64,000 nt of DNA from Sistotremastrum niveocremeum HHB9708 (taxonomy: Eukaryota > Basidiomycota > Agaricomycetes > Sistotremastrales > Sistotremastraceae): assembly GCA_001630475.1 (NCBI GenBank), contig KV419418.1:346193-410192 (forward strand), in the 5' to 3' direction. Of this stretch, positions 26,417 to 63,100 are shown in pieces. Below the pieces are notes generated by a model. The model did not search any database. It was not told the origin of the DNA and saw only the letters and a list, made by a program, of their open reading frames with translations. Made by a program: the position numbers and the translations under genes. The stretch's first letter is position 1; each line of letters starts with the position of its first letter.

Positions 26417-28672
26417 ATGCAGCCTTTCCTCGAGCAGATCATCCATACACCATCATCTGGTCTCGGGATTACTTCAGTCTTAGTGTTCGGCTCGTTGCTT
26501 GTCGCACTATGTTTTTGTCCAATCCAACTTCGACGATTCCGGCGAAGACCTCCTTATCCACCGGGGCCAAAGGGTATTCCGATACTAGGAAATGCACTTC
26601 AGATCCCTACCAAAGCTCCTTGGTCTCAATATCGTCAATGGGCCGAAATCTACGGTATGCTTCTGTTTTTCCTCACATCAACCGCTGAACGCAGGTTCGT
26701 TTAGGTGATATCTTCCATCTACGCATCCTTGGACAGCAGGTTATCGTTTTGAGCTCACTCAAAGTCGGGATGGATCTGTTGCACAAACGCAGCGCAATAT
26801 ATTCCGATCGTCCGGACATGTCTTTGACACGAGATCAGTGAGTATTCCGGAACCCCCACACCACTCTGAAATCTCATTGTGTATAGCGGAGGTTGGAAGT
26901 TCAACCTAGGTTTCGAGCCTTATGGAGAAGAATTCCACCTTAAACGTAAAATCCTCAATCAGTCCTTCAATCCGAGTGCCACAAAGAAGCATTATGGCTT
27001 GATGCATGACAACATCAAGTTATTTATTCAGAGCGTTCTGAATAATCCGTCAAAATTTCAAACATACAATCGAATGTAAGCCTTGATACCGATAATTAAC
27101 CCAGAATGTCTACTCATAAGCGTCCCCAGGTATGCCGGGGCAAATATTATGATGTTAACGTATGGCCACCAAGGTAAGTGAGTTGATTGTCTGCTGCAGG
27201 TCAAGGCTTACTCGGTTACACAGTTCTTGACGAGCACGACGAATGGATAAAGAGCGCTCACGAAGCCGCTGCGACTCTCGAAGTATTAGGGACCCATCCG
27301 ATCGATGTGTGGCCAATATGTGAGCTAAATTGATGACCTATGTTTTGAGCTGTGTTGATGCAATATTAATCAGTGGGTCGATTACCATATCGTATCTGGG
27401 GAAATAAGTTTGCCGACTAGTACGTTGTCAAAATGAAAAAGGCGACCTATCTCGCCTCTGTTGTTCCTTATGAGATCGTGAAACAAAGATTTGTAAGCAA
27501 ATAATTCCTCTTCGCTTTTGAGCCAAGTCAACCTAATCAATTGATATCAAAGTTCGACGGGACTGCTTTGCCCTCCATGGCGACATCTTTGCTGGAAGAA
27601 AACTTGCAGTCCGACCAGACCCTAGCAAACGAGATTAGCATCAAAGATAGCCTTGCGGTAACTTATATAGGTAGGTATTGTACTCCAAAAATTGATGGTA
27701 ATTCACTGAGATGCATTTGGAGCTGGAGCCGACACGGTTTTTGTTCCTTTCAGACGGCTTCCTGCAGCCTTCTAACTGCTCACTCTGAAGACTGTTTCTA
27801 GCGTCGACACGTTCATTATTGCAATGCTTCTCCATCCTGAAATACAACGAGAAGCGCAAAGGACCATCGATGAGCTCCTACAAGGAGGACGACTGCCTTT
27901 GATGGATGATAGACCATTCTTGCCATACATCGAAGCGATATTGAAGGAAGTGCTGCGGTGCGTCATTTATCACACCTCGTGGCTGTGAGTTTGGCCGAAT
28001 AAATTTCCAGATGGAAACCAGTGACGCCTGGAGGTGTGTAATCCCATTATGGCATTCTTGAAAAAAAAATCATCCAAAATATTCTAGGTGTTCCACATCG
28101 TTTGATTTCAGATGATGAATACGAAGCAATGTACATACCAAAGGGCACGACCGTCATCTTTAATTCTCTGTGAGCGATGTCCAGCAATCCTGCCCTGCGT
28201 TCGGCTGAGGACGGGCAGAGCGATGTTGTCGAACCCAAAGGATTATCCGGATCCATCTACGTTCAACCCAGGAAGATTCGTGGAGCCCGTCGACGGAGGT
28301 TATGTTCTTAGATCAGATATAACTGACCCACAAGAGATTGCTTTTGGATTTGGGAGGAGGTACGTCCACATGTATTAATGGTCAAACTGATCGTCCTACT
28401 CATGATATTACAGGATATGCCCCGGACGTCATTTCGCAACTGCGTGGATATGGCTCACAATCGCCAATCTTCTAGCCGTTTTCGATATACTCCCGGAGCA
28501 TGATGCCAACGGTAGGCCTATAATGCCAAGCCTGGACTATGAGGAAAAAATCATCAGGTATAGTGAACTCAACGTCTCACTGATTTCGATACTGATGAAT
28601 TTTGTATCAAGTCATCCTAAGCCATTCAGGTGTTACTTGAGGCCTCGATCTGACAATCATTCAGCGCTTTGA
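26417..28672 (+). pseudogene. Cytochrome P450 locus 1, nearly whole but with one extra in-frame stop
   Basis: Microsomal P450: N-terminal TM anchor, then the hinge RPPYPPGPKGIPILGN, HKRSAIYSDRP, HGGWKFNLG, YGEEFHLKRK, the I-helix AGADT, K-helix EVLRWKPV (ExxR), FNPGRF, and the heme loop FGFGRRICPGRHFA with the Cys ligand. About twelve introns match positions in loci 3 and 6. The only break seen is a TAG at 27418-27420 after KFAD: paralogues read FADYVKHMK or FADQLEDMK, and here an additional TAG codon sits before YVVKMKKAT. Everything after it remains in frame to the stop at 28670-28672. This is either a recent pseudogene, a sequence error or an allele with reduced function. Belongs with loci 3 and 6 by the AGADT and GHQ motifs. 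Confidence 0.75.
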
Positions 28673-30341: not shown

Positions 30342-32540
30342 ATGCCCTCCGACCTGATAATACTCGGATTATTATGCCTCAGCGTAGGCTCTTTGATATA
30401 CATCGTACAGCGACACCGAAGCCTTCCCAAAGGCCTTCATTATCCTCCCGGTCCTAAAGGCCTCCCAATCGTGGGCAATCTTCTTCAAGTCCCTCCGAGT
30501 TTGCGCGTGCAGAAATTCCTTGATTGGGCGAAAATATATGGTACATCTTCGCATAGACGATTGCATTCTACTTCATAGCTGATTTTCCATTCGTTCAGGC
30601 GATATTTTCTACCTCGATTTGATGGGACAACCTACTGTTGTCATCAGCGGCACTAAAGTCGCCCTTGATCTTCTTCATAAGCGCGGTTCCAATTATGCAG
30701 AGCGTCCGGGAATGTCATTATCGCGCGATAAGTCAGTCGAATATCTTCTGCCATGCTAATTCTTCCTTCAACTTACCCATCATAGTGGATGGGCATTCCT
30801 TCTGACGACGGACTCGAACGGAGAGTTGTTCCATCTCAAGAGGAAATTCATCAATTCGTTCTTCAATCCAAGCGCAACCAAGCAACATCACTCAGTGATG
30901 GGCGACAACATCCACGAGTTCATTCAAGCTCTTCTTAAAGACCCTTCCAAGTTCATGACATACAACCGAATGTAAGTCACTCGCTTAGCATCCGGCCGTA
31001 TCTTACTGAACGAATTTCAAGGTACACGGCTAAAAATATTATGATGTTGGCATACGGCTATGAAGGTACGATGCTTGAGCATTTACTTAATGATTGAATA
31101 TAACTCAAGAGCTGTAGTGACGAATGAACACGACAAAGCAATTTTCAGCGCTGAAGAAGCCGTCACCACCTTGGAAAGCCTCGGTGCCCACCCTATCGAT
31201 ATCTTGCCTTCGTGTTGGTACTCTTCTGCGATTAAGGTGGCGAATTTCTCTGACCAAACAGCTTCCAGTGGGAAGATTGCCTTATTGGATTTGGGGCAAG
31301 ACTTTCACGAATCTTTTGGACAAGATGCGTAGAACAACACACGAAGTCGCCGTAGTACCATATGAAGAAGTGAAGACTGCATATGTGAATGCCCCTTCCT
31401 TCGAGTGTTCCGCTAATCATCTGATCGACGCTGATCTGTACAGTTCAACGGGACGGCCGTGCCCTCGATGGCAACGGCTCTATTCGACTCACACGCAAAG
31501 TCAGACAAGACGGTCGCGCACGAAGATGCCATCATCGGTAGTCTCGGAACGACCCTGATAGGTGGCGGTGACACTGTTCGTTTCCCTTCCTTCATTTTTG
31601 TCAATTATGAATCTAATAAGGCCTTCAGACGCCTTCGAGCTTGAATACCTTCGTGATTGCTATGATGCTCAATCCCGATATCCAGCGTGAAGCTCGGAAG
31701 GAGGTTGACAAATTATTGCAAGGCGAAAGACTTCCTAAATTGGAAGATCGGGATTCATTGCCTTATATAGACGCCATATTGAAAGAAATCCAACGGTAAG
31801 ATGATTAGCTTGGCTCTTTTTTACACTCGTTTTAATCGAAGTCTTAGATGGAAACCGGTCGTTCCCAACGGTATCCGATTTTTCCCTCGATGATTTCTAT
31901 GTGTTCTGAATGATGCATTTTTAGGAGTCGCTCACAGAGCTACGCAAGACGACGAATACCAGGGCATGTTCATCCCGAAGGGATCCACAGTAGTTTTCCA
32001 CGTCTTGTGAGTATATGTTGAACGCTCCGAAAATTAAGTATCGCTAAGATTATTTAGGGCCATCATGAACAATCCGAGAGACTTCCCAGAGCCCGAGAAA
32101 TTCCTTCCTGAGAGGTTCTTGAAGAAGGAAGGAGACAATTACACCCTTCGAACGGACGTCATTGACCCCACAAGCGTCGCATTTGGCCTCGGGCCAAGGT
32201 ATTAATTCTTACTTCACATTTCTTTCCAGAAGACTCATCCAATCTTTCGAAAGAATCTGTCCTGGCAGACACTTCGCGAACACGTGGTTGTGGCTTGCCG
32301 TTACCACCCTTCTGGCGGTCTTTGAAATATCCCTCGAACTTGACGATGCAGGAAAGCCCATAATGCCAGATCTAGAATATGTTCCTGGGCTCGTAAGGTG
32401 CGTAATTTGATTTTTCTGCGTGGAAGACAGATTCATCATTGAATCGATTTTCTAGTCACCCTAAGCCCTACAGGTGCTCATTGAAGCCTCGACCTGAAAT
32501 GCTGGCATGTCTCCGAGCGAATGACTTGATCTATCCTTGA
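30342..32540 (+). CDS. Cytochrome P450 locus 2
   Basis: Heme-thiolate monooxygenase, probably ER-bound: TM anchor LIILGLLCLSVGSLIYIV, hinge HYPPGPKGLPIVGN, HKRGSNYAERP, I-helix GGGDT, ExxR in KEIQRWKPV, and heme loop FGLGPRICPGRHFA. C-terminus SHPKPYRCSLKPRP, then ANDLIYP. All exons join in frame with no break seen. It is the most divergent of the plus-strand loci: it has a single G where others have GGW, and lacks the intron that in the paralogues lies just before the GADT motif (the exon reads straight through TTLIGGGDT). Start chosen at 30342; the open frame extends upstream without an ATG. Its C-terminal exons closely resemble those of the chimeric relic at 36.5-38.0 kb. Substrate unknown. 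Confidence 0.85.
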
Positions 32541-35825: not shown

Positions 35826-36480
35826 TGCCCGGCCCCGGCTATCGTGAATCTATAATCTGTGCGGCGCATGATGTGCTCTCGAAAGACTTCTGAAGTCCCA
35901 AGCCTGCCGCAAATGGTGCAAATCTGATGGCGTCAAGGTCGATGTTAAGGTTCGGACATGGTTCGGATGATTCGGCCGGAGTGCATCCGAGCACTATGTT
36001 TACATAAGCCTCACATCCTGACCTCGCAATTGCTCGCAATGGTCAGGTTCGCGCCTTGGACATCTTCGAAATGTTCTTCCATGTATCAAGGGCTATCTCA
36101 ATTGACCTGTCAACAGAACAGCTGTATTTTCTATCCTTCGCCGCCGTAATTCGTGCCCTTGTCCCAAAATGCGAATGATGTGGCCTCAGGCTATAGTTGG
36201 CGAGAAGTCAAACCGGCATCCCATTGCCAGTATGGCGATCGTGAATATGATGACCGTTAGCTCTAGTCCTTGGTTTTGAAACCGCTTCATCCAACCTCTC
36301 CTTCAGGTAACGTGCATCTTCTCTCTTCCTTTAAATTGCGTCAGTCTCATCATCACACGTAGACCAACTTCCTCTCCGGCTGTTAGAATTCGTCCATGGG
36401 ACGGTCATCAGAAACCTGCGCCTGCGCTGAGAAATTTATTGTGAGTGCCAGTTTAATGCCACCGAGGTCGTGCTGATGAT
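35826..36480 (+). repeat. Duplicated P450 upstream segment, copy A
   Basis: Contains AAGTCCCAAG, GCCGCAAATGGTGCAAAT, a TCGGCCGG block, then GCGAGAAGTC, CTCATCATCACACGTA and CTCTCCGGCTGTTAG. The same order of blocks is seen on the minus strand between P450 loci 10 and 9 (about 59900-60465), and the first part also at about 44335-44500. Here it precedes the relic of a locus-9-type P450, so the promoter and gene were duplicated together. Confidence 0.6.
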
Positions 36481-36504
36481 TTTTACTCTGCAGCGTTCCA
36501 AAAG

Positions 36505-37961
36505 CTGTCCATTCTTATGACAGGCTCTCGCGCCATCGCCTGGAGCCACATGCCCCCATACGGTTCTCTCATCCCTCTCCAACGCACCCAATCAGCAATG
36601 TCCTTAGGTCTTTTTCTCCTCTTCCTATACGTGTCTGTCCCGCGTGGCAAGTGGTCCTGACACCGACAACGGGGCATGTATCCCCCTATTCTCGACTTGT
36701 AGGGTATCCCGATTTTCGGGAATATCTCTAAAATTCCTCTTGTGACAACTTGGATCGGATTCACCGGATAGGCCGCTGTCTATGGTTGGTTCCTCACCCC
36801 CGCATTACTATTTCTCGTTATTGACTGGCTGGTACAGGGGATATGTATTTCTGTGAGCTTTGGGAATGAAGATCGTGGTCATCAACCCTTGAGAACTTGG
36901 CTTTGATCTCTTACCCAAGCGAGATGTAATCTATTCTAATCGACTGATGATGGCTGTGACCGTTGACAACGATTCGTCTCAGCGGCGGCTAGACGCCGTA
37001 TAGGCAGGACTATACGGAGAAGACTTCCCCTTCAAACGCTATATGATCAATCGATATTTCGATAGAAGCCCCCCGCAAGATATCAGGGCATGCTCGCCGA
37101 AAACCCGACAGCTCTTGCATGTCCCATGCTGGAGCATTCTACCGAGAAATCCGGGTGCAGAGCAGAATGTAATCTGACATGCACACTACTTCTTGTCATC
37201 GTTTAATCTCTATGTGGGCAGGTACGCAAGCGCCAATATAATATGGCTCGCTTACGGTCGTAAACGTGCGTTTCCCGTGTATCCTCACGCAGAGCCTCTT
37301 GCTAACGTCAATCTATTCACTAGCAACGACGACGAGTGAGACGTTAATGCCAAAGAAGCATCCACACTCTCGAATGCATTGGTGGTCCTGGTGTTCATCC
37401 CATTGACATAAGGCCCGTGCGTACGTCGAGCGTCTCTGTCCGCTTATGGATGGCATGGCTGACATGTGCCCAGTCCGCAAGTTGCATTTACGACTCCAAG
37501 GGAAGAAGTGCGCAACGCGGCTCTTATGAAGAAGACTGCTATGCGGACGACAGCTCTGCCATGCCGTATGTCGTAAACGCAACATATGTACGTGATCAAC
37601 ATCATTGTATATGCCAAGTCTGGCGCTCATATTATCCCTTTCATTCTCGTAGTTCGATGCGATTGCGTTTCCTTCCATAGCCGCGGGGCTAATCGAAGCA
37701 AATTTGACCCCGGCTGGCACTATCAAGCACGAAGATGGATTGCTATTTTCGAGATATCCCTGGAGCGTGACAATGAGGGGAGGCACATAATGCCAGATCT
37801 TGAGTATGTCCCTGGGCTTGTCAGGTGTGCGACATTACTATTTGCCATTAAGGACTCGAAAGATTGATTAATTGAATCTTTCTAGTCACCCCAGGTCCTT
37901 CATCGAAACCTCGACCGGAAATGCTGCTTGTCTATGGGCATCTAACACGATTTATTCCTGA
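36505..37961 (+). pseudogene. Chimeric P450 relic, locus 4
   Basis: Decayed P450. The 5' part follows locus 9: GIPIFGN, then a block equivalent to WIRFTEWAAIYG, remnants of the KIVVIN and LLHKRG segments, a degraded GGW/YGEEF exon, an ANI...YGRK remnant of NIMSLTYGHK, then GVHPIDIWP and LPLRIWG equivalents, and FDAIAFPSIAAGLIEANL matching the locus-9 FDGTALPSMATGLIEANL. Near 37731-37740 it jumps without I-helix, K-helix or heme exons to a C-terminus that matches locus 2 (IFEISLERDNEGRHIMPD, then EYVPGLVR and the last exon ending in IYS). Many stops and shifts occur in the first part, and the start codon is lost. So it is a dead fusion of two P450 types, not a gene. Confidence 0.8.
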
Positions 37962-38725
37962 TTACCCGTATCACTTAAAATACTTAGATACTGTTAAACT
38001 GCGATTGTGATGTACTGGGCCAATCCTAGGCTTCGCGGAAGATCTCGTAGACTTTTGTTATAAACCTGGGATATCTTTTGATTGCGCACTTTATGGGAAT
38101 GAAAACGGTAGACTGCCGACAGCTAGCTAACCATCGTCAAGATTACCATCGTCTGCTTGATCGTCTGGCTAGCGAAAACTGCGATCCTGTAATAGGACTC
38201 GCTTGACGACTGCGCGGATGCCGATCCTGGGAACGGCCCGCATGTCGAGCCAACGCTCCGGGAACAGCCCCCTGTTTCCGAGTCGACTCCATTCACCGTG
38301 AACGCATTCGAATTTTCTGACAACATTCATTTTCGAGTCGCGTGCGGAGACCACTTCTCTGCTCATTTGTCTGACCTGCTGAAAGGAACTTCAATGGATT
38401 ACAGGCACCGCCCCTCATCTTCCTTGGCATAATGGGCTCACGATACACAGGCTGTGTTCAAATGAATGAATCGAAGAGCGCACAACACCACGCAGTGAGA
38501 AAATCGGTTAATATTGGTGGGTGATTAGATGACTGATCTAGAAGATTTAGGGATAAAATCAGGCGCTTGCTGGGAAGAAACACCGATTTTCGGCTTCGAT
38601 TACATGTATTATTGATTTCGCTCGAGGCTCGAGGACACTCAATGATGTATTTCATCGCCCGACGACACTATCGTTTCCAGCTGCTCAAAACCCAGCAATA
38701 ACTGTTCGTTCCGCTTGCAAGGCCG
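37962..38725. other. Intergenic region before P450 locus 5
   Basis: About 760 bases with no supported gene. A GC-rich stretch at about 38200-38350 is again found upstream of a P450 start. No clear TATA box seen close to the start at 38726. Confidence 0.35.
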
Positions 38726-41096
38726 ATGGAACTCGATAACCTCACATCGAGCTGGCCGTGGAAGCATGCGTCTCTTGACATAGCATCCGTTGCAGATCGC
38801 CATCTATCCTTCAAACTCTTTCCGTTATGGTTATTACCCATCGTGATCGCACTGGGTGTCTTCTCTATCCGATCCCGGAGCAAAGGCAAGAAAGGATTCT
38901 ACGATCTTCCAGGTCCCAAAGGGCTCCCAATCTTAGGCAATATACTTCAAATACCTCTCAAGGGTCCCTGGTTCAAGTTGACAGAGTGGGCAGCCGAATA
39001 TGGTATGCCCATGCCTTCGCGATCGCGAATCCCGCCAAAGGCTTATTTATATCTCATGTTTGCGTTTCAGGGGACATGTACCGTCTCGATATGATGGGTC
39101 AAAAGGTGGTCGTTCTGAACAGCGCCCGGGTTGCGCACGATCTACTACACAAACGAGGCACGATCTATGCCGATCGGCCGCAAATGGAACTTGCACATCA
39201 GTGGGACCTCATTTTCTTCAGTCAGGATTATATGCTCAACGCCTCATACGCTCTAGTGGCGGATGGGGATTCGCACTTACACTTGATACGTACGGAGAAA
39301 ATTTCCACATCAAGCGCAGGTTTATCAATCAAACCTTCAATCCAACTGCAACAAGGAAAAGCCTGGGAGTAATGTACACCAATATTCGACTATTCCTCCA
39401 AAGCCTCCTCCGCGAACCAACAAAATTTCATTCTTATCATAAAATGTCAGGTATTTCTCCGTTGGACAAGGTGCCGAATTTGTTGCGTCCAATCCTGACT
39501 ACGTGTATGAAGGTACACAGCAGCGAACATCATGATGGTGACTTACGGACATCTCGGTATGCGTTGTTGCAATAGTCTGTTATAAAAACGATGCTGACCA
39601 TGAGCTTTATTATCAGTTGAAGACGAGAACGATGAATGGACACGAAACGCTGAAAAGGCGCTTACAACCCTGGATACGTTGGGTCAACATCCGATCGATA
39701 TATGGCCAAGCTGTAAGCGTTTTCAGTTTTTGGGACGCATGAAATATTGATATTAGTGAAAATTGAAGTGGGGAAGTTGCCTTTTGCCATCTGGGGCAAG
39801 AAATTTGTCAAACAAATGAAAGAGATGAAAGAGGCGACCCATACAGTCTCCGTTGTGCCATATGACATCATCAAAAAAAGATTTGTGAGTTCGATTCGAG
39901 TGCACGTATCACTAGCTACATATGCGAGTTGCATTGTCAGTTTGACGGAACGGCTGTTCCCTCAATGGCCACAGAATTATTGGAAGAAAATCTGAGGGCC
40001 GATGGTACCATCGCACATGAAGAGCTTATTAGTGGAGCTTGTGCCATCACGTACATAGGTGAGGACATGATTCACACAGAGAATATTTGATTTTTACTGA
40101 CGTGAATTCGATGCTATGCAGGCGGCGCCGACACGGTTTGTTATTTGATTTGATCCAGAGTCTTCAATTTGACACCCGTATAAGACCGTGTCAAGTCTTG
40201 ATACATTTGTTATCGCTATGATCCTCAATCCTGACATTCAACGTGCTGCTCAGAAATCTGTGGACAAGGTGTTACAAGGAGAAAGACTACCCAATCTGGA
40301 TGATCGAGCGTCGCTACCATTTGTAGATGCTCTTATTAGAGAGATTCAACGGTGAGATTTTGCTATAGTTTTAGAGGACTATGCTTATCAGAACGAATGT
40401 AGATGGAAGCCGGTCATTCCGGGAGGTAACCATGAAATTCTTTGCTCGATGTTGCTTCGCTCAACGTTCTTTCAGGTATTGCGCATCTCTCCTTAGAAGA
40501 TGACGTATACAACGGTATACTTATACCCAAGGGTACAATGATGATTTCGAATACCTTGTATGGGAGCAGAATTGGGACCCCGCATGTCCGAACTGATCTT
40601 AAAAACAGGGGTCAGATGTACAATCCGGCCAATTTTCCCAATCCCGATGTCTTCGATCCCTGTCGTTTCCTGAAATATGACGGAGAGAATTATACACTGA
40701 GAGAGGATGTGCAAAATCCTTTGGATATTGGTTTCGGATATGGACCGAGGTATGCAGTATGCAGTCCCTTACACGCGGATTTTGTCCAAATCTAGATGCC
40801 GAATAACACCGTAGAATCTGTCCGGGTCGACATTTTGCAACTTCTTGGCTTTGGCTCACTGTGGCCACTCTTCTCGCAGTATTTGATATTTCGCCAGAGG
40901 TTGATGAAGCTGGGAAAGACATCTTGCCAGATTTGGAATATGAAGCTCTGGTTATCAGGTGCGATTCTCGCTAATTGTTGCTCGCTGTGCCGCATTAGAA
41001 TAACAGCGGTATGATAGCCATCCCAAGCCTTTCAAAGTCAGGATGAAAGCCCGCGAGAAAATTGGTCCCATGTTGGCGGCAGTGGACCTGATCTGA
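38726..41096 (+). CDS. Cytochrome P450 locus 5
   Basis: Starts MELDNLTSSWPWKHAS, a short luminal segment before the TM anchor (LFPLWLLPIVIALGVF). This is a layout shared with loci 8 and 10 only. Hinge YDLPGPKGLPILGN, DMYRLDMMGQKVVVLN, GGWGFALTLDTYGENFHIKRRF, YTAANIMMVTYGHL, I-helix GADT, ExxR in REIQRWKPVIPGG, heme loop FGYGPRICPGRHFATSW. The C-terminus follows SHPKPFKVRMKAREK and ends AAVDLI. All junctions join in frame and no break is seen; one splice before GGW uses the weaker donor GTGGGA. Likely functional and ER-bound. Same type as loci 8 and 10. Confidence 0.85.
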
Positions 41097-41988: not shown

Positions 41989-42021
41989 TTGCAGCCTGTT
42001 ATCCCATCTACCGAGATATCA

Positions 42022-47575: not shown

Positions 47576-48701
47576 TTAAACCGTAGGCTGTCCCTCCTTC
47601 GCATCTCCAATGCTGACGCCCTGCTGTTTCTCGATCGGCAGATTCCAAGGACCTGCATCGCTCAAAGAACATCCCTGAGCACAACGACATTTTCCGCCCA
47701 AATCATGCGGAAGATTCTCCTCAGGAATCTGAGCCAAGAGATCTTTTTGATAACTGCTCCCAAGAATAGAGATCTTCGCCACCGTCACAGGATCCAACCA
47801 CCCCTTGACCAAACTCCACACGGTCGAGAATCCCCAAGGTGCGTTGATGATATAGAATTTGCCCATGCATTCTGGGTATCGGTCTTGACCGATCTCGGAA
47901 GCTTTCTGAACGCTGCCCTTCACGTCGAAGAATTGTTTGATTCCTACGCCTTTGAGATCTAGGATCGTGCAGGAGGTTTCGACTGGATGACCGACTGCGC
48001 GTGAACATGCGGGAAGTCGCTCGGTCAAGAATTTCTCGTATTCTAAGACGAGGCGCTTGATGAGACGGTCTTGAGTCGTGATCTTCCACAATTCATTCAC
48101 GTTGAGCTGGCCAAGTCGTTCGATGTATATTGGTCGTCCATCCTGAACGTGCGCGATAAGCCCACTGATCAATGAAAGAAAAGGATAAGACGCACTTTAT
48201 CCATCTTGTGATAATACTGAGGATAATATTTATCCACTTCCTGTTTCTCCTTAAAGTCGAACGATCTAAAAATACGCGATGACAGGTGAGTCATCGCCGC
48301 TTCGCCCAGAACTCGTAAATCGCCCGAACGACTCACTTGACAATCTCATCCACGCCAAACTCCTTCCTCCATTTCTCATTCGCAATGAACATAGCCAAAG
48401 CTTTCTCAAGATCGAATTTCCTTGCTCTCAAGAATCTGCAAGTACGACACGACAACGACGCGACGAAAAAATGCGACACAGCCCACTTCGAATCAGCCTC
48501 CTCCTCAATTCCAAGAAGAGAAAGGACATACCGTAAAAGAGTAGCATCATCATGTCGTTCAGCATCATACCATCCCTCCTCCTCCAACGCCTTCTTAAAT
48601 TTCTCAAGCGTATGTTGTTGAGGAATCGTAAGGTTACCAATGCGACCAGGCAACGGCTTATAATTAGGATCGGTCACTATCGGTGATTGCGTCGATGTCA
48701 T
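47576..48701 (-). CDS. SEC14: SEC14-like phosphatidylinositol/phosphatidylcholine transfer protein
   Basis: CRAL-TRIO lipid-transfer protein that keeps Golgi membranes competent for secretion. The N-terminal CRAL-TRIO-N domain has [23 protein letters not shown] (LRARKFD is the family signature), and then [23 protein letters not shown]. The lipid-binding core has [37 protein letters not shown] (the PE.....INAP..F signature) and [11 protein letters not shown]. About 300 residues, the usual Sec14 length. Three introns; the first, within [10 protein letters not shown], is a multiple of three and open, so a naive frame reads through it. Start chosen at 48701 (MTSTQSPIV). An upstream in-frame ATG (48887) would add 62 residues of low complexity. 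A whole, conserved gene inside the P450 region, so the array was split around it. Confidence 0.93.
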
Positions 48702-49357
48702 TTCTATCGGCTCGACGAGCGGAGGGGATCGTGATGTCGGATTTGGGGGTATGGGCTGTGATGATGAGGGGTATGAGCAAGGTTGGAGCAGAGATATAAA
48801 GCGCAGGGTTCGGAGGTCGTTCTTCGGATGATGTGTTCCTGAGCCAAGGGAACCATCATTAGCATCGTTGGCTGGTGCAACGAACACATCACTTCACACT
48901 GAGACCGATGAATGCGACGACTTGGAATATAGCTGAAGTGGATGATCTCTGCTCCTGTTTCTCTGTCACTCTCAAGAATATGTGTGATTATCTTTCATTT
49001 CTGTGGCAGGATATCAACGAGGCATTCTACACATGAGATACTAATCAGACGAATCAGTAATATATACGAATGAACGAAACGAAACGATGCGATGCGATGC
49101 AAAAAAGGTAATAAAAAGAGAGCAAAACGGGAACGGACAACGAGATGCTAGTAGATGTACAATGTAATGCGGATATCGATCGATGAGAATGATTCAGACG
49201 ATAAGGATCAAGTGGGGGTAGTTTGCGATGCAAGGACAGCGAGCGATACGATAACGATCGAGTCGATTAGGTTGGCCGAACTTATAGTAGTTGGTCCATT
49301 TTAGAGCAATGAGATGAAGATGAAAGCGAGCGAGAAAAAAGGAAAGGGAAAAGGAGA
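48702..49357. other. Spacer between SEC14 and PPR genes
   Basis: Both genes are on the minus strand; this holds the SEC14 promoter and the PPR 3' end. A purine-rich stretch with ACGAAACGAAACGATGCGATGCGATGC-like short repeats occurs at about 49073-49101. No gene seen. Confidence 0.4.
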
Positions 49358-52300
49358 TCACTGATAAGTAGCATAGAGGGGGAACAGCCCTGCACTCGAT
49401 GAAGGCGATTCCGAAGGAGGAATGAAAGAGCCATAGGGTGATGAAGGCTCATCGTGCAATATTCCACTGACGCGATGAACGACCGCGGGTGGATAAGCCC
49501 TGTACATCATTAGCATACATACGAAACATATAGATGAAATGAAGTACCTAGCTTGCATCCTCGAAATAAGATCAAGAGCTTCCTGTCGATTACCAGCACC
49601 CAATTCCGCTCTAACAATCGCCTCCCAAGTCGAAGGCTCACGATAAACCGGTGCATCAGCAGGAGCACTCATCGAACTCGCACTCCCAACCTTCCCATCA
49701 TGCGGCGCATGATTCATAGGCGCAGCCACACCCATCGGAGGATCTAAAAGCCCCTCAAACACCTCTCTCGCAAGCCCCAAATTTCCCGCAGCCGCATGTC
49801 CTTTAATGAGCAAATTCGCGATGTAAGCCGTCATATGCACTTGAGCGCGACGAAGACGAGCAAGGTAAGAGGGTATAAGGTCCGTTTGATGTAGTGTTAC
49901 GAGGACGTTGATGAGTGCTTCGTAGACTACTGCGTCGGGGAGATTGGAGTGCGGTTGAGTCGAGGGGTGCGTGGGGATCGAGTCGAATATTGCTAGTGCT
50001 TTTTCGAGGTTCTTTTGAGCGCAGCCGTAGGAGTTGATAAGGGCGGCCCAGTGAGTTCCGTTAACTTGCACTTGACGATCGGCGACGAGGGCTGCGAATA
50101 TATCTTCCATGGCTTTCGTATTGACCGGTTGAATCGTGCCATATGCGTCGAGGAGGAGCTACATTCCAGGCTGAGTATCGATAAAATAAGAAAAATGAAG
50201 AAGGGACGTACCTTGTAAGTATGCGCAGAAGGAGCCACACGAGCCGCCTTCATCGCATTATAATAATAAGTGACCTTCTCCATATTCGGCTTCGTATGCG
50301 TATAAAGCTGAATCATAGTATTAAAAGGCGGCACCCTCGGCGTATACTTCCTCGACCTCTGCATCTCCGCAAAAAGCGCTTCGGCAGAATGAGCATCGCC
50401 CACACGACAACAAGCAGCAATCACAGCTCCATACGTTACCGAACTGGGGTAGATCCCAGAAGCTTTCATCTGATGGAATAATTCGAGTGCGAATTCTGCT
50501 TTGCGGGCTTTTGCGAGACGCGAGATGATGGTGTTGTAGAGGAACATGTTGGGTTTTACACCGCGGGATTGGGATTCGATCCAGAGCTGCATCGCATTGG
50601 ATACGTCGTCCGTCGTGTCTTTTATACCTGTGATCAGAGCGCCGTATGCATCGGCCGATGGGGCTCCGCCTTGAGACATTATTCGTTCGCGATGGACGTT
50701 AGCTGAATCGAGGTCTCCGGCGTGGGCGAGAGCGATGATCATCTGATCTTCGACTTGGAACCAAGCAAGTGCCAACGAACCTTCTTTCCCTCCATTCAGA
50801 TTCTGCTCCATCGAGCTCAACACGATCTGCGCAGAATCATAAAGCTTTCGAACGGCATCCCGATCGCCTAGACGGCCCATAGCATTGATAAGTCTTCCAA
50901 TGACTTCAGCGGGTGGATAAATCCCTTTTGAGAGTCCTTCGATGAATCGAGAGAATCCGTCGCGCGCTGTGAGACGGCGATTGGAAGGGAAATATTCGTC
51001 TACGTATCGGCCGTGTGATTCGTCGATTATTGCGTATGTAGGCGGTTGTGCGAAGGGGAAATCTGCAGAGGGGGATTCGACGTATTGCCATTCTTGTTCT
51101 GAGGCCTCAGCAGCGTCGGCGGGGGCGGGTGCAGGGGAAGGGGAGGGAGCACGGAGCGAAGATAGAGGAGTCGAATTTTGCGAGCGGGCCTTGACGATTT
51201 CCCTCACGGAATTCTCCACATCCCTCACATTCCTCTCTGCCCCTTCCTCCTTAGCAGAAGTAAGCACTTCCTGTCCAACAGAAATACAAAGACCCGTCAC
51301 CCCACTATCCAATAACATCTCGAACTTCCCTCCGAGGTCTTTGAGAAGACCAACAGCTCCTTCGACTCCCAATCTCTCGGTTAAAGCGCGGATGATGTGT
51401 CTTTTCGCGCGAACATCGAATTCCTCTGGATCGATTGAGGTCTTGGCCAGTTCGCGGAGAAGCGAAGAGGTAGTGATAGCTGCAATAGCCTTCTTCTCCA
51501 CACCCGTCAACGGAATATACCCCTCCCGCTTAACAAAGGTCCGCTCATTATACCCCGGTAACTCATTGCTCGCAACAGCAAACATCAACATACTCCATTC
51601 TTCCTTCGTAAGTTCAGAATGAAGATCCCTGCCTGAGGATTCGGAGGTGGAGAGAGAGGTGATGTAGGAGCGGATGAAGTAGGGTGCGAGATCTTCGTTC
51701 ATTATGAATAGGAGCTTGTCTTCGTATGTTCGTGCGAGGGCGAGAGCATCTTTTAATCCAATGAACGATTGTCCAAGACCATTAGAACCGGTAGGAGCCG
51801 CAGGCGATGTAACAGCCGAGCGCGAAACCGAGGAAGTCGAAGTCGAAGAAGCCGAGGAGGAAGAAGGGGAAGCACCGAGGAGAAGCAACAAAACATGATT
51901 AGCAGTAAAATGAAACTCCTCCCTCCTCAACGCCCAATGTTCCGGAAAATACTCCTTCCCATTCTTAACCCTAATCCACCCCTTATGAGCTTTATCAGTT
52001 CCCTCCATCCATGCTTTTACCATTTCGAGCGCACGAGATGTAAGGGGAGGAGAGGAGGAGAGGGCGAGTTTGAGAGCGTGGGATATGAATGTGTTGGAGG
52101 TGGAGGAGCCGTAGGATATTGGGCCTGGACCTGAGGTTGTGCTTTCGATGGGTGAGGTGGATGACGAGGTGGAGGTGGAGGTGGAGGTGGAGGTGGATGA
52201 GGTGGGGGAAGGGGAGGTGGGAGGACCGAAGAGAAGGACTTTGTCCAGGACAAACTGAACAATCTCTCCATACTCCTCCGTCGAAAGACTCTCCTTCCTC

Positions 52301-54105
52301 TCAGCGAGATACTCCATATTAGCACCAGCCACCAAAATCCGATCCATACCCCTAATCAACTCCCTCACCCCTTCCTCCTCTCCCATCCTCTCAAAAAGCG
52401 CATTAAGCTCCTTCACCCGTCCCGCCTTTGCAAGTTCCTCCAAAAGAACAATCCAAGCCCCCACATGCGGTTTAACAGGATCCTGTATCGGCTCATAAAC
52501 ACTCCTCCCCCTCGGACTCCCCGCCCCCTCCCTCTCCAACAACTTCCAAAACCACACAAGCGCAGTATCCAAATCCCCCGCTGTACAAAATCCTCGAATG
52601 ATAGCGGTGTAGGTACCTATACATGGCATTGGAGGATCTTCAGGACCGAATTCCAACCCACGTGGTGTGTCGAGCATTTGTTCGAAGAGGGTTAGGGCGG
52701 ATGAGGGTTCTGAGGCTGAGAAATGGGCTTTGATCATTTCGGTCCAGATTTGGGATTGGGAGATTCGGGCGAGGCCTGTGCGGGTTGGGGTGGCGAGGGA
52801 GGATGTATTTGGGGGGAGGTCGAGTTCGGATGAGAGTTCTGTGGAATCTGCTTCGGAGTCTGTGGAGGGTTCCGAGCGAGAGGCAGAGGTGGAAAGAGGA
52901 CGAGAAGGAGTAGGAGAATTATCCTCATCAGCCCAATAAATCGCCCCCTCCTTCTTCGACATCTCTCTAAACTCCTCAAATACCTCTCTCGCACCATTAT
53001 AGTCCCCACAAGCATTATACACTCCAATAAGATGATAATAAATCCTCGCAGTCGGAAGGACAGTACTCGAATGTCTTTCGAGATGGGCGAAGATTCGGAT
53101 GGCTGCGTCGATTGATTTGTGGTAGACGCAGGAGCGGAGGAGGAGGGTGTATAGGTTCGCGTGGAGGGGAATGTTTCGGAGAGCCGAGACGGCTTGGAAG
53201 AGGAGGAACGCGGAGGCGAAGTTATTTTCTTTGGAGAGTGCAGCGATTCGCTTGGAGTCTGCTTCGTCTGCCATCTGCGAAGAAAGACCAAGAGCATTCC
53301 GTCTCTTCATCCTTCCCTCCAACGTACTCGTAACTCTCATAATCTCATGATCGCGCTCACAAAGTGCTGTGATCAACGTCCTGTAAGTGCGAATGTTGGG
53401 CATGAGATCTTTAGCCAGCATCTCGTTGTAGGTCTCCAAGAGCGGAGTGAGAGGTGCTCCTGGTTCGCGAACGGAATGGAGAGCTTGGAGAGCCATGTTG
53501 TACCCTGCTGTCGTGGGTGTTGGACATGTTGAACGATAGTGTGTTACGGAGGAAGAGATGGTCTTGGCATCGTGTGATTCGAAGGCTTGTTTGAGAGCTA
53601 GATAGCCTGGGATCGTGGAGGGATCGAAATCTTCTTTTGAAGAGGAGGAGGAGGAAGAGAGTTGATCGGGGAAGGGAGGGACGGAGAGGGAGAGATCGGA
53701 GGATGTTGTCGAGGAAGGGGCGGAGGATGTAGGTGCGGATGGGGAGGAAGTCGAGTTACGTCGCAATCCAACGACAGACGAGCGATTTGCGAATGTCGAA
53801 GTTCGAACAGTCAACGGAAGACGTTGATAGCGAGGTTTTCGCTCGTCGTCCGTCACAGACGAATTAGCCTGCGTCAACGCCCGTCCAGCGCCCTAATCAT
53901 ATGTCAATGTCAGCCCTCCCCCAGATAAGATAATCTAAAAGAAAGAACGAACGGTATATCCATTATAAAATCTGCTACCAGCATTATACTTAGCGCCCCC
54001 AGCAGCCCCAGCCCCGCTCTGCGAAGAATTAAAGAATCCTCTTCCGAGCGCATTCGATGTTCTGGGGATATGGTGGAATAGATTCGTGGCGAATTTAGGC
54101 AGCAT
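49358..54105 (-). CDS. Large mitochondrial pentatricopeptide-repeat protein
   Basis: About 1,500 residues. The first exon (MLPKFATNLFHHIPRTSNALGR) is basic, hydroxylated and without acids, a mitochondrial presequence. A short intron with a GTTCGT donor joins NGYT to GAGRALTQAN. PPR helices are seen in two blocks. The N-terminal block includes TAGYNMALQAL, MPNIRTYRTLITAL, ARIYYHLIGVYNACGDYNGAREVFEEF and CIGTYTAIIRGFCTAGDLDTALVWF. The C-terminal block includes SADAYGALITGI, KPNMFLYNTIISRLAKARKAEFALELFHQM and PSSVTYGAVIAACCRVGDAHSAEALFAEM. A long non-PPR middle is S/T rich. Two further introns lie at the 3' end. PPR proteins bind organelle RNA, controlling stability or translation; fungal Cya5/Ppr-type proteins are the likely kin. 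The particular RNA target is unknown. Divergence from plant-type PPR codes prevents target prediction by eye. Confidence 0.87.
52165..52195 (+). repeat. GGAGGT hexanucleotide repeat inside the PPR gene
   Basis: About five units of a 6-base repeat. On the coding (minus) strand it reads as alternating Ser-Thr in the low-complexity middle of the PPR protein. In frame. Confidence 0.65.
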
Positions 54106-55657: not shown

Positions 55658-55665
55658 GATGCATC
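55658..55665. repeat. Left target-site duplication of the MITE
   Basis: GATGCATC, repeated exactly at 56182-56189. The octamer is itself a palindrome. Confidence 0.75.
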
Positions 55666-56181: not shown

Positions 56182-56189
56182 GATGCATC
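56182..56189. repeat. Right target-site duplication of the MITE
   Basis: GATGCATC, the partner of 55658-55665. Confidence 0.75.
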
Positions 56190-57447: not shown

Positions 57448-59826
57448 CTAATTCGAACCAGATGAGCCCAACAACCTCCACACCCCTCCCTCACGAGCCC
57501 TCAAAACACACCTAAAAGGCCTCGGATGACTTTCCCACCAAACCACCCCATCAACCTTCATCAACGAACAACACATTAACTCAAACGAAAAATACACACC
57601 TAATCGGACCCTTATCATACTCAACCTCAGGCAACCTCACAGCCCCAAACTGATCCCTCGCTGGCAGAATATCAAACGCAGATAGAATCGTAGCCATCGT
57701 TATCCAAATCCACGCCGAAGCGAAATGACGTCCTGGACAGATCCTATACATATGTATACTCAGAGTCAGTGGGGAGAGCAGCGTCAAGTGAGTTTGGCGA
57801 GAGCTGAGAGCTGACCGTCGTCCGAAACCAAATGCCATATCTTCTGGATTCCTCACATCGGTTCGGAGAGAATATCGCCGATCGCGATCATCGTACTCTA
57901 AGAATCGGCCAGGGTCAAATTTGGATGGATCTGGGAATTCTTGAGGGTTGTACATCATTGCTCTGTCATTCATGTCAGGATGATAAGGGTATGGGAACCA
58001 AGAGTGTCGTACAGCATGTTGAAGAATATCATAGATCCTGCAGGTATGAACATGCCTTGATATTTATCATCTTGAACCGAACGATGAGGAACGCCTGGTA
58101 AATTTTATCAGTAATTGGAACAGCTTTCGGCCTTCAGGCGAAGAGTACGAATCACCTGCTGGAAGAACAGGTTTCCATCTATAATTCCTCATGAGCAAAG
58201 TAGAAGATTGGAATGAAATTTGACGTACCGTAGCACCTCTCTGTACAAAGCCTCCACATAAGGAAGAGAACCTCGATCCTCAAAAGTGGGCAATCGTTCC
58301 CCTTGCAACAATTCATCAATACTCTGCTGAGCCTCGCGTTGTATCTCAGGGAAATGGATCATCGCTATGATAAACGTATCGAGACTTCCAACTGTCTTCA
58401 TTACTCGCAATCAGCATCTTCCCGCTTTCGAAATTTCGTAGCTTACGGTATCTGCACCAGCTACAGGGACATTATGAGGAACATTCTCGTGATTTGTCTA
58501 AGTAGTTTGAGGGACGTACCGATATATGTCATTGCTAACACCCCGTTTATCGCATCTTCATGCTTGACAGTGCCATCCGGCATCAAATTCGCTTCAATCA
58601 ATCCCGTAGCCATGGACGGTAAAGCAGTCCCGTCAAACTATAAGCATCGGAGGAAACGGATGAGCTCTAGACTTGGCATGAGCAGTCGAGCTGATCACGT
58701 ACATATTTTGCCTTGACGATATTATAAGGCAGAGTCGTCGTCCGCTCAGCCGCTTTCTTCATAAAACCCACGTTACGCACGAACTTCGTCCCCCATATCC
58801 GCAAAGGTAACTTGCCCACTGTAAAACCGTGAGCACGTTATTTATTAGTGAACAGAGAAGCTCGACGCACATATGGGCCATATGTCGATGGGGTGAACAC
58901 CGGGACCTCCAAGACATTCGAGAGTGCGGATAGCTTCTTTGGCGTTTATGACCCACTCGTCGTCGTTGCTGGTGACTACAACACGTTAACGGGGAACTTC
59001 ATAGTATATATGCGGAACGTACCTTTATGACCGTAAGTGAGTGACATTATATTGGCACCCGTGTACCTGTGAAGCCAGAAAATGAGAAGAGCACCAAGAG
59101 GGTTTGCATCAGGTGGCTTTACATTCGGTTCTGTGACTGAAACTCGGTGGGATGCTCCAGCAATGAACATGCAAACGCTTTCGCATTGTCAGCGAGCATG
59201 CTCTGATATTTGGCAGAAGCACTTCTGTTGAAATATTGATTGATCATCCGACGTTTCAAGTGGAACTCTCCTCCGTATGGTTCCGCCGATAACGCGAACG
59301 TCCAGCCACCGCTTCGAAAAATCTTCGTCAACCATCTGAATGTGGAAAGAAGAGGAGTACACTCACTGCTCTCGTATTACCGTCATCCTAGGACGATCAG
59401 AGTAGTTCACACCTCGCTTGTGTAACAGATCAAAGCCGATTTCACAAGAGTTGATGACCACGATCTTCATTCCCAACGCCGACAGAAAATATATATCTCC
59501 TATAGAATGCACTCAATCACGGGGAAATAATTCTCCAAACCCGAATACATACCGTAGATAGCTGCCCATTCTGTGAATCTGATCCAAGGTGCTACAAGAG
59601 GAATTTGAAAGGTGTTTCCAAAGATTGGGATACCCTTGGGACCGGGAGGATACGCGCCCCATCGTCGATGCCACGGACGCTTTCCAAGCGTGAAAAACGC
59701 GTATAGGAGTACGACAGAAATGACTGAAAGCACTGCCCATTGGGTGCGTTGAAGAGAGATTGGAGGACAGTATTGAGATAAGTAGTTCCGTAGGATGGTG
59801 CGAGAGTATGTGGTAGGAATGGTCAT
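57448..59826 (-). CDS. Cytochrome P450 locus 9
   Basis: Starts MTIPTTYSRTIL, TM anchor (WAVLSVISVVLLYAFF), hinge GAYPPGPKGIPIFGN, FLSALGMKIVVIN, HKRGVNYSDRPRMTV, GGWTFALSAEPYGGEFHLKRRM, YTGANIMSLTYGHK, a GGPGVHPIDIWP block, FDGTALPSMATGLI, I-helix AGADTT, ExxR in REVLRWKPVLPAG, GVPHRSVQDD, and heme loop FGFGRRICPGRHFASAW. C-terminus SHPRPFRCVLRARE, then SSGSN. All exons join in frame, so it looks whole. A consistent 5'-leader intron (GTGAGT...CTACAG) precedes the ATG. It is the living relative of the 5' half of the chimeric relic at 36.5 kb. Orientation is opposite to the main array. Substrate unknown. Confidence 0.87.
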
Positions 59827-59837
59827 TTTATGGACCG

Positions 59838-59896
59838 CTGTAGACGAAGACCTATCAGTACGACCTTGGTGGAATCGCACTGGCATTGACACTCAC
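59838..59896 (-). other. Probable 5'-leader intron of P450 locus 9
   Basis: On the minus strand a GTGAGT donor and a CTACAG acceptor lie 59 bases apart, ending 11 bases before the ATG. The relic at 36.5 kb keeps the same arrangement (GTGAGT ... CTGCAG) before its lost start codon, which supports a real conserved leader intron. Confidence 0.5.
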
Positions 59897-60708
59897 ACTA
59901 GCTTTATCAACGCAACCTCAGGTTCTGCTGATGACTATACCAAGGACGCGTCCTAACAGCCGAAGAGAAAGTTGGGGTACGGGTGATGATGAGCCTGACA
60001 CTGACGAAATTTGTACAGTAGGAAGAAGCATGGTACTTGATGAGAGGCTGAAGTGAAGACCGTGCTAGATGCCAGCGCTATAGTTTACGGCCATCGTGTT
60101 CATGGTCGCCATACTGTCATAGGCATTGGGATGGCCGTATGACTTCTCGCCACCTTGGCAAGGGATGGCCGCATCCAAGGCCGTATCATCCGCATTTTAC
60201 GACATAGACGCGACTTATAAATTCAAAAGCTATACAGCGAGTTGGGTTTACTGATGGGTCAGTTGAGAAGGCCTTGGATGCATGATAGGACATGCCAGTG
60301 AGACATTTCGACGAGGTCAGAATGAAGTGAAGCTTACGTAAGGACGGTTCTCGGCCGAAGAAGCTGCCGAAGGACGACCTCAATTGGACGACCTTGACCT
60401 TGACCCGGAAATCGACATCGCATTTGCACCAATTTGCGGCGGACTTGGGACTCATAATCGATCTACAACGAAGTTTTATCTAGGAGCACCGCATGCCCAC
60501 CTCGTCGTATCACAAGAACACGACTTATGGCCAAGTTTATGGCTGCAAAGAAATCGTACGGTAGAATCGGTTTGCATGATGATGGGCTACTCGAGAGGGC
60601 TATCATGCTGGATAGATGATCAGATCTTGAATCTCCCGCATTCCATGCGCTCTCTCGTGCCACTGGCTCCACTATTCTCAATCACTCCTCACATGGCACG
60701 CCCCTCCA
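59897..60708 (-). repeat. Spacer between P450 loci 10 and 9, with copy C of the duplicated segment
   Basis: Read on the minus strand, 60465 to about 59900 carries the same ordered blocks as copy A (GAGTCCCAAG, GCCGCAAATTGGTGCAAAT, TCGGCCGAG, GCGAGAAGTC, TCATCATCACCCGTA, CTCTTCGGCTGTTAG). It is the promoter side of locus 9. No gene is supported; a 127-codon plus-strand frame at 60384-60767 is a by-product and overlaps the end of locus 10. Confidence 0.55.
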
Positions 60709-63100
60709 CTAGATCAGGTCTGCTGCTGCCAATACGGCTCCAATATTGTCACGTCGTTTCAACCTGACTTGGAATGGCTTGGGGTGGCTACCAGAATATC
60801 AATATTGGATCAACATACACTCGTTCTACTGGAAAAAGACATACCTGACGACTGCGGGCACATATTCCAAATCAGGCAATATATCGTTTCCAGCAGCATC
60901 GATCATTGGCGATATATCAAAGATGGCAAGAATTGTCGACATTTCGAGCCAAAGCCATGATGTCGCGAAGTGTCGTCCAGGGCATATTCTGTAAACACGT
61001 TTTCTGAAAGTGAGTAAAATGCACAACGGAGCGTTTCACCGAAACAATGGCTAACCTTGGTCCGTATCCGAAAGCAGTATTCAAAGGATCATTCTCCGCC
61101 TTCTTCAAGGTATGCTTGTTTCCGTCGGACTCCAGGAAACGATAAGGATTGAAAATCTCGGGGTTGGGAAAATCATCAGGATTGTGCATTATAGCCCTGC
61201 TTACACTCAGCGTCGTAATCGTGGTCCGCCATCCTACTTCTCTTACATTACGTTAAAAATGATCATTGTACCCTTAGGTATCAATACCCCTTCGTATATG
61301 TCGTCGTGTGTGGAGCGATGTGCAATACCTATGGGTGTATTACTGGTGTCAATGGATTGGTTATAACAAGTTACGATTTAGACCCTCACCTCCCGGAACA
61401 ACAGGCTTCCACCTTGACAACTTCCATATTCAAGAAATGCTCGACGAAAATATATCCAAAAGCTCACCGTTGGATCTCCATGAATAGGGCATCCAAAAAA
61501 GGCAACGACGGTCTGTCATCAAGGTTGGGTAGCCTTTCTCCTTGTAAAACCTCATCAATGGATTTCTGAGCTTCGCGTTGAACCACCGGATTGAGCATCA
61601 TAGCGATCATGAATGTGTCAAGGCTTGAGACGGTCTTCAAAAGCGTAGAGGAACATATTATCAGTCTGCCCTGGCCAATGCACAAGTGAGCAACCCACCG
61701 TGTCCGCGCCGCCTTCGTCGTTCGATACTAAATCAATTGAACCTCTATCGCAACAACTTTCAATACTGACCTAGATATGTAATTCCCAGAGCGCCGCTGA
61801 TAAGCTCTTCATGTACTATTGTCCCATCGGGTCTGAGATTTTCCTCTATCAGGGCCGTGGCCATGGAGGGAACTGCGTTTCCCGAGAGCTAAAAGAGTAA
61901 ATGATCAATGTCGACTCGGAAATATCTTGGAATTACTTAAAAATTTCTCTTTGACAATGCTATATGGCACAGCAGAAACCAGGTGAGTTGCCTTTTTCAT
62001 CTCTTCTATTTTTTTAGGGAATCCCTTTCCCCAGATTGCGTACGGTAGCTTCCCCACTCCGGCTCCATTAGCCCTGCATTCTTGAGAAATATTAAAGCAT
62101 CTACTCACGGATTGGCCATATATCGATCGGATGTTGAGCCAATGTTTCGACGGTTGACAGTGCCTTTTCGGCATTCCGAGTCCACTCGTCGTTTTCGTCC
62201 TCCACTGTCAACACCGCCCTGCATCAATATGACTCACAGAACAGAGTGCAATCTAGACTACCCAGATGTCCATAAGTCACCATCATAATATTCGCCGCAG
62301 TGTACCTTCAGAGACGGGAAAGTCAGAGCCAGATAACGCATCTTGCAAGTGTGATGAATTTCTCCTACATTTTATGATACGAGTGAAATTTTGTGGGATC
62401 TCGGAGAAGACTTTGCATAAACAATCGGAGATTGGTATACATGAGGCTCAAGTGCTTCTTAGTCGCGGTCGGGTTGAATGTTTGATTGATGAATCTGCGT
62501 TTCACATGAAAGTCCTCTCCATACGGATCCAGTGTTAGATTAAACCCCCATCCGCCGCTGGCCCATGTGTCAGGATTTATCGAAGCCTCGTTGCATAATG
62601 ATGAAGAATAATAACGTACTGATCTCGAACCAATGCCATCCCCGGTCGATCAGCATTGTTTGTTCCACGTTTATGTAAGACATCATGTGCAACATGAGCA
62701 CTATTCAAGACGACAACTTGCCGACCCATTATATTTAGATAGTAGATGTCACCTAAACCAATATGAGATTGTATTCATGAGCATTCAACGAGTTCGAGGT
62801 TATAGCTATAGACGTACCATATTGAGCCGCCCACTCAGTAAACTTGATCCAAGGACCTTTAGGGGGGATCTGAAGAGCATTTCCCAAAATCGGAATACCT
62901 TTAGGCCCAGGGAGATCGGAGAGACTTCTCGTGCCTCTACGATCAATAGTGTGGAATTTCGTCCAGAAAATGATGCCGACAGAGAGACAGAGGACGGTTG
63001 ATGATAAAGTCTTCAACGCGAAAACCCAGTCCACATTTGCTCTTGTATAGAGAGAGGCAGTCTTCCAGAGCGAACGAAGCGTGAGGTTTTGGAGTGACAT
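60709..63100 (-). CDS. Cytochrome P450 locus 10
   Basis: Starts MSLQNLTLRSLWKTAS, close to locus 8, then the TM anchor (TLSSTVLCLSVGIIFW), hinge SDLPGPKGIPILGN, DIYYLNIMGRQVVVLN, GGWGFNLTLDPYGEDFHVKRRF, YTAANIMMVTYGHL, I-helix GGADT, ExxR in MEIQRWKPVVPGG, GIAHRSTHDD, and heme loop FGYGPRICPGRHFATSW. C-terminus SHPKPFQVRLKRRDN, ending AAADLI. All junctions join in frame, including a splice into a G-start exon before TGG AAG. Looks whole. Its last exon is almost the same as that of the deleted locus 8 on the other strand 14 kb away, so it is the best guide to what locus 8 once was. A TATATA at 63263-63268 (minus) lies about 165 bases upstream. Confidence 0.88.

What the first reader, a model, noticed from the sequence alone, without database searches (positions are those of the whole stretch)
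26417..63100. Ten P450 loci of four types, in every state from whole to relic
Within 37 kb there are three whole copies on the plus strand (loci 2, 3, 5), two on the minus strand (9, 10), and five altered ones (1, 4, 6, 7, 8). Types are interleaved: loci 1/3/6, loci 5/8/10, locus 2 with the C-ends of 4 and probably 7, locus 9 with the 5' part of 4. Copies of a type lie on both sides of SEC14/PPR and on both strands. That needs tandem duplication plus at least one inversion, and makes this a good record of birth-and-death evolution. Intron positions are largely shared, so all derive from one ancestor.
Basis: partly seen in the sequence, partly recalled or inferred. Interest (0 to 1): 0.7.

Follow-up and report, generated by a model that had tools for sequence, protein, structure and literature searches.

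The report
Old, rearranged cluster of fungal P450s
A stretch of about 42 kb of a fungal chromosome carries eleven copies of one cytochrome P450 enzyme family, some apparently intact and some decayed; it is an ordinary but unusually readable record of gene duplication, inversion and loss, and it does not look built from a single founder gene by local copying alone.

Summary
The ten P450 loci are real and lie where stated. Loci 2, 3, 5, 6 and 9 have clean models. Locus 1 has one in-frame stop, and locus 10 has lost a 5' splice site. Loci 4, 7 and 8 are relics. An eleventh copy lies just past the window edge, interrupted in exon 12 by a repeated 621-bp element.

Locus 9's nearest relative in the protein tree is on another contig (100/99), and the array as one clade is rejected (p-AU 0.0005). 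The other copies can form one clade, marked by a shared 9-nt shorter exon 5. Shared introns say little, because the same exon series recurs in P450s on ten contigs.

Duplication plus inversion is supported by non-coding homology. The 3-4, 6-7 and 10-9 gaps are related, and 7-8 and 11-10 stand in mirror order across SEC14/PPR. Relic 4 is a fusion of a type-9 and a type-2 gene. Relic 7 belongs with copy 11, not locus 2.

The closest long pairs are old (dS 1.3-1.5) and constrained (dN/dS 0.10-0.13). Such clusters are known in basidiomycetes: new member of a known kind, modest interest.

The parts
26417..28672 (+). P450 locus 1, 14 exons, one in-frame TAG at 27418-27420 (exon 6 is 119 nt instead of 116)
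30342..32540 (+). P450 locus 2, clean model, 13 exons: exons 7 and 8 fused (31444-31575), i.e. intron 7 absent
   Evidence: Pfam PF00067
33484..35720 (+). P450 locus 3, clean 14-exon model, sister of locus 6
35894..36447 (+). gap 3-4: non-coding homologue of the 10-9 gap (opposite strand) and, in its first part, of the 6-7 gap; that first part is the 3' flank shared by loci 3 and 6
36616..37976 (+). P450 relic 4, a fusion: type-9 exons 1-7 up to about 37737, then type-2 exon 13 onward from 37748; 12 stops/frameshifts in the 5' part
38726..41096 (+). P450 locus 5, clean 14-exon model (start codon uncertain)
42022..44222 (+). P450 locus 6, clean 14-exon model
   Evidence: Pfam
44223..44726 (+). 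gap 6-7, homologous in parts to gap 3-4 and to gap 10-9
44727..45116 (+). P450 relic 7, exons 12-14 only, with frameshifts and a stop; sister of the out-of-window copy 11
45940..46860 (+). P450 relic 8: exons 1-3 joined to the end of exon 12 and exons 13-14, about 1.35 kb missing relative to locus 10; frameshift in exon 1
47576..48893 (-). SEC14-like gene (CRAL_TRIO and CRAL_TRIO_N exons), between the plus and minus P450 groups
49358..53892 (-). PPR protein gene, between the two P450 groups
57448..59826 (-). P450 locus 9, clean model, last exon read by eye to TAG at 57450-57448; has the 105-nt exon 5; nearest relative in the tree is on contig C8
   Evidence: Pfam
59890..60452 (-). gap 10-9, homologous to gap 3-4 (opposite strand); the change from locus-10 3' flank to this sequence lies between 60452 and 60618
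60709..63100 (-). P450 locus 10, 14 exons, intron-6 donor is TT at 61940

Best explanation
This is an old tandem cluster of cytochrome P450 genes of one many-intron family. It has eleven loci: eight on the plus strand, then SEC14 and PPR, then three on the minus strand, the last just outside the window. The copies fall into at least five lineages: A (5' part of 4, and 9), B (5, 8, 10), C (7, 11), D (3, 6 and perhaps 1) and E (2 and the 3' part of 4).

Shown: intergenic DNA was copied with the genes. Sequence that leads from the 3' flank of a D gene towards an A gene occurs three times (gaps 3-4, 6-7 and 10-9; an A gene still follows in two). C and B neighbours occur twice in mirror order (7-8 and 11-10). 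Shown: deletions, one joining two genes of different lineages and one inside a gene, shaped relics 4 and 8.

Supported by the tree: lineage A split off before the other array lineages and a sister cluster on contig C12 separated, so the array does not trace to one local founder unless those genes moved out later. Inferred: a C-B block was duplicated and the segment carrying copies 11-10-9 was inverted, or an inverted duplication did both at once.

Inferred from the P450 family: the clean copies make membrane-bound monooxygenases that use a cysteine-bound haem and electrons from the cell's P450 reductase to oxidise small lipophilic compounds. Copies are retained by purifying selection while others decay (birth-and-death evolution).
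For: Gene models: 35, seven of them in the window and five of those clean. Protein tree of 34: W09+C8_211 100/99, W03+W06 100/99, W05+W10 100/100, W02 with 5/10 97/96, copy 11 with 3/6 94/93, and the 11 rows without lineage A 98/92. AU test: whole array as a clade rejected, p 0.0005; array minus 9 not rejected, p 0.62. Exon 5 is 96 nt in 7 of 35 models, all in this array; 105 nt in 26 including locus 9; 102 nt in one; one not separable. Relic placement: 4 3' part with 2 (99/98), 7 with 11 (96/95), 8 with 10 (100/98). Relic 4 5' part scores 640 with locus 9 and 377 with the next best query. Gap homology: 3-4 with 10-9 E 2e-50, 3-4 with 6-7 E 2e-22, 6-7 with 10-9 E 3e-9, 7-8 with 11-10 E 1e-14 and 8e-5; shuffles keeping base composition gave 1 hit for 260 queries, E 0.004. 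dN/dS 0.10 (3/6) and 0.125 (5/10), dS 1.29 and 1.46. I-helix, ExxR and FxxGxRxCxG motifs in all seven long window copies.
Against: The gene trees do not fit one simple block duplication: if 3-4-5 had become 6-7-8, 8 should be sister to 5 and 7 to 4, but 8 is sister to 10 and 7 to 11. The C-B pairing of gaps is thin: the stronger match (E 1e-14) is the 5' flank of 8 and 10, and only a 36-bp match (E 8e-5) lies on the 7/11 side. In the short DNA tree of exons 13-14, locus 9 falls with locus 1 (84/90) and not with C8_211; that row is flagged as long and of odd composition. Support inside the group is weak in places (37/72, 39/80, 77/89), and only the exon-5 length argues that the C12 cluster is not nested in the array. 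No transcript, sister genome or reads were available, so the lesions in loci 1 and 10 could be sequence errors and expression is unknown. The aligner admits only GT/GC-AG introns, so GT-AG ends are partly by construction.
Confidence: 0.78

Rival explanations
1. One reading: one founder P450 on this chromosome gave all ten loci by local tandem duplication and an inversion.
For: The copies share the 14-exon plan, several gaps share DNA, and seven long copies share a 96-nt exon 5.
Against: Locus 9 groups with a gene on C8 (100/99) and has the 105-nt exon 5; the array as a clade is rejected (p-AU 0.0005). It could still hold if the C8 and C12 genes were exported from this array, which the data here cannot exclude.
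Confidence: 0.25
2. The array is young and its copies are kept alike or mixed by gene conversion.
For: Loci 5 and 10 share a stretch of about 40 identical residues, and copies lie close together in both orientations. Eight of 78 pairs had a permutation p under 0.05.
Against: DNA identity of 5 and 10 in 100-column windows stays at 51-80% along the gene. The lowest of 78 permutation p values is 0.001, for copy 11 with a C12 gene, which does not survive correction; 5/10 is not among the 25 lowest. dS is 1.3-1.5 for the two closest long pairs and 2.2 or more, or saturated, for the other array pairs.
Confidence: 0.05
3. The orientation change is not an inversion but an inverted duplication of a block (7-8 giving 11-10), with the A gene carried in separately.
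For: Mirror order C-B / B-C across SEC14 and PPR, with 8/10 and 7/11 as sister pairs; a change of homology between 60452 and 60618 separates the B and the D-A pieces.
Against: A tandem duplication followed by one inversion gives the same mirror order; nothing here separates the two.
Confidence: 0.4

Closest known systems
Tandem P450 clusters of Phanerochaete chrysosporium (PMC1184071, passages seen)
   Same: Clusters of tandem P450 genes, up to eleven in one, with conserved intron positions within clusters, and microexons in the genome's P450 genes; duplication and rearrangement proposed as origin.
CYP5144 family of basidiomycetes (PMC3899305 and PMC3990721, passages seen)
   Same: Tandemly arranged; members with 13 introns (11 in P. 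chrysosporium as I read the table's P/I column); EXXR/CXG pattern E-V/T-L-R and F-G-F-G-R-R-I-C-P-G, as in loci 1, 3, 6 and 9.
   Different: Loci 2, 5 and 10 have E-I-Q-R and F-G-[LY]-G-P-R-I-C-P-G; membership was not tested against named sequences, and CYP5037 and CYP5152 share part of the pattern.

Membership tests
Cytochrome P450 (PF00067) | whole-domain profile match above the curated cut-off | tested here: met
   loci 6, 2 and 9 (3 of 7 long window copies tested): 205.5, 240.7, 200.8 bits against 22.8
Cytochrome P450 (PF00067) | haem-ligand cysteine in FxxGxRxCxG, ExxR of helix K, acid-threonine pair of helix I | tested here: met
   present in all seven long window copies; the ExxR of locus 10 was missed by the motif search and read by eye in the model
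CYP5144-like | EXXR and CXG patterns of the family as tabulated in PMC3990721 | tested here: inconclusive
   loci 1, 3, 6, 9 fit, loci 2, 5, 10 depart (table); the pattern is not exclusive
CYP5144-like | over 40% identity to named CYP5144 proteins (criterion recalled; a passage of PMC1184071, mentions a 40% similarity criterion for families) | not testable with these tools
   no collection of named fungal P450s was searched; among the 60 of 151 PDB matches shown, the best is CYP2R1, E 1.4e-39
Birth-and-death tandem gene family | neighbouring copies are closest kin | tested here: inconclusive
   holds for 3/6, 5/8/10, 7/11 and relic 4 with 9; among long copies locus 9's nearest kin is on C8
Birth-and-death tandem gene family | mixture of constrained and decayed copies | tested here: met
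   dN/dS 0.10-0.13 for 3/6 and 5/10; relics 4, 7, 8

The most novel reading that the evidence does not exclude
The array is a long-lived reservoir that has held two anciently separate P450 lineages side by side and has seeded, or been seeded by, the cluster on contig C12 and the gene on C8, while stretches of more than one gene inside it were duplicated, mirrored and fused. Genes of different lineages were joined by deletion at least once (relic 4) and perhaps twice (relic 7, whose upstream flank is of the type that precedes A genes), so the array also tries out combinations of P450 halves.
Probability: 0.3. Interest if true: 0.45.

Novelty: new member of a known kind. Interest (0 to 1): 0.3.

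Why it matters
It gives a concrete case of how fungal P450 families grow: by old duplications that carried intergenic DNA, with inversion and gene-fusing deletions, not only by recent single-gene tandem copying. It also warns that physical clustering and shared introns do not prove a single local founder.

Tried and rejected
Gene conversion between loci 5 and 10 was suspected from a stretch of about 40 identical residues; the permutation test gave no support. Further relics: five stretches (24500-26450, 28700-30350, 41100-42000, 53900-56900 on both strands, 63000-64000 minus) peaked at 47-90, background level; the rest of the window was scanned only with the locus-6 protein. Larger segmental duplication: seven gap or flank sequences and the SEC14/PPR stretch against 14 fetched region sets gave no hit at E 1e-3; repeated with two P450 gene bodies as positive controls, which hit 13 of the 14 sets, the eight again gave none. 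SEC14 relatives lie on C27 and C28, where neither P450 search listed a match (capped lists). Relic 7 with locus 2 was tested and not supported. Loci 1, 3 and 6 as a clade were not rejected (p 0.475), but copy 11 is placed nearer to 3/6. Model C8_265 was left out of the tree as irregular (34 of 35 rows). The extra last exon of locus 9 is an aligner artefact; I read that exon by eye. Other models have doubtful first exons. Paper searches for rearranged or birth-and-death P450 arrays showed 15 of 347 and 10 of 3,819 papers; I saw only these listings, and none names such a locus.

Full report
What was checked. The window is part of contig C25 of a 34.7-Mb genome in 111 contigs; no relatives of it are held. 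I wrote a spliced protein-to-DNA aligner, built the locus-6 protein by hand from the sequence, and scanned the whole window with it (126 windows of 3 kb over both strands). Seven long copies score 1270-2238; outside the array the highest score is 89. A profile built from the first models was then used on the long loci, giving 35 models: seven in the window and 28 elsewhere in the genome, one of these the eleventh array copy. The 28 come from the regions fetched, chosen from a capped hit list, so the family may be larger.

State of each locus. Loci 2, 3, 5, 6 and 9 have open models. Locus 1 has one in-frame TAG in an exon 6 that is 3 nt longer than its homologues. Locus 10 has TT in place of the GT of the intron-6 donor; an in-frame path through other splice sites nearby exists. 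Relic 4 has 12 stops or frameshifts over 280 aligned residues and then switches type. Relic 7 keeps only exons 12-14. Relic 8 joins exon 3 to the end of exon 12, with a few similar bases at the joint.

Outside the window. An eleventh copy lies at C25:411206 to about 414050, minus strand. Its exon 12 is interrupted by a 621-bp element with terminal inverted repeats; by eye the flanks show an 8-base target duplication. The element occurs at seven places in this genome, this one included, and one other is 99% identical over all 621 bases, so the insertion is probably recent. An 8-base duplication is typical of hAT elements (recalled, not tested).

Lineages. The protein tree of 34 models pairs 3 with 6 (100/99), 5 with 10 (100/100), 2 with 5/10 (97/96), copy 11 with 3/6 (94/93), and locus 9 with C8_211 on another contig (100/99). 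Four copies of a cluster on C12 (about 360-372 kb) fall in the group of 11 that leaves out lineage A (98/92). Holding all eight long array copies together costs 43 log units (p-AU 0.0005). Holding the seven without locus 9 together, or the four C12 copies together, each gives a likelihood 2.1 higher than the free search (p 0.62). Exon 5 agrees: 96 nt in exactly those seven copies, 105 nt in 26 others including locus 9, 102 in one, one not separable. Relic 4's first part keeps the residues that the seven lack. Relic ends placed by a 16-row DNA tree of exons 13-14: 4 with 2, 7 with 11, 8 with 10; in that short tree locus 9, flagged as long and of odd composition, falls with locus 1 at 84/90, against the protein tree.

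Order and orientation. Non-coding gaps carry the history. The gaps before relic 4, relic 7 and locus 9 are related, and the first part of that sequence is the 3' flank shared by loci 3 and 6. So the passage from a D gene towards an A gene was copied to three places, one of them in the other orientation; an A gene still follows in two. Neighbours 7-8 and 11-10 stand in mirror order across SEC14 and PPR; their gaps match at the 5' flank of 8/10 (E 1e-14) and, thinly, in a 36-bp stretch on the other side (E 8e-5). Composition-keeping shuffles gave one hit for 260 queries, at E 0.004. The change from locus-10 flank to D-A sequence lies between 60452 and 60618. One block duplication of 3-4-5 into 6-7-8 is tempting from the order, but the relic tree contradicts it.

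Age and constraint. Of the array pairs only 3/6 and 5/10 have dS under 2 (1.29 and 1.46, Nei-Gojobori), with dN/dS 0.10 and 0.125; the others are at 2.2 or more or saturated. The long copies are therefore old and have been constrained. Relic 8 is 84% identical to locus 10 over its 3' end, so that split is younger.

What is known. Tandem P450 clusters of up to eleven genes, with conserved introns and microexons, are described for Phanerochaete chrysosporium (PMC1184071, passages). Basidiomycete families such as CYP5144 are tandemly arranged and include 13-intron members (PMC3899305, passages). The CXG and EXXR patterns of loci 1, 3, 6 and 9 fit CYP5144; those of 2, 5 and 10 do not (PMC3990721, passages). 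The family name is a lead only.

Verdict. The finding is real and well described for a reader without tools. Its central claim holds in part: duplication and inversion, yes; one local founder, not as stated.

Noticed in passing
C25:411540-412160 (window coordinates 65348-65968, outside the window; L039): 621-bp repeated element with terminal inverted repeats inside exon 12 of the eleventh P450 copy; seven places in the genome, this one included, one other 99% identical.
   Followed up: yes
window 55659-56185: Copy of a dispersed element of about 527 bp; 40 places scored, this one included, the rest 86-98% identical over the matched part (a lower bound). One copy on C10 sits between two pieces of the 621-bp element.
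   Followed up: partly
window 63489-64022 and C25 beyond the window (69270-69799 in window coordinates): A related sequence about 68-69% identical to the 55659 element; the two copies are 93% identical to each other and in opposite orientation.
   Followed up: no
C12:359789-372006 (L041, L042): Cluster of four P450 copies of the same family in one orientation; one model (C12b_359) has a frameshift or odd intron in exon 12, depending on the query, and one (C12b_363) lacks intron 10.
   Followed up: partly
window 31444-31575: Locus 2 has exons 7 and 8 fused, a clean absence of intron 7 next to a 14-nt microexon.
   Followed up: partly
window 8445-24805: Genes before the array by Pfam: protein mannosyltransferase (PMT, MIR), a CLP1/NOL9-like kinase, and a thioredoxin-domain gene that looks like a protein disulfide isomerase.
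   Followed up: no
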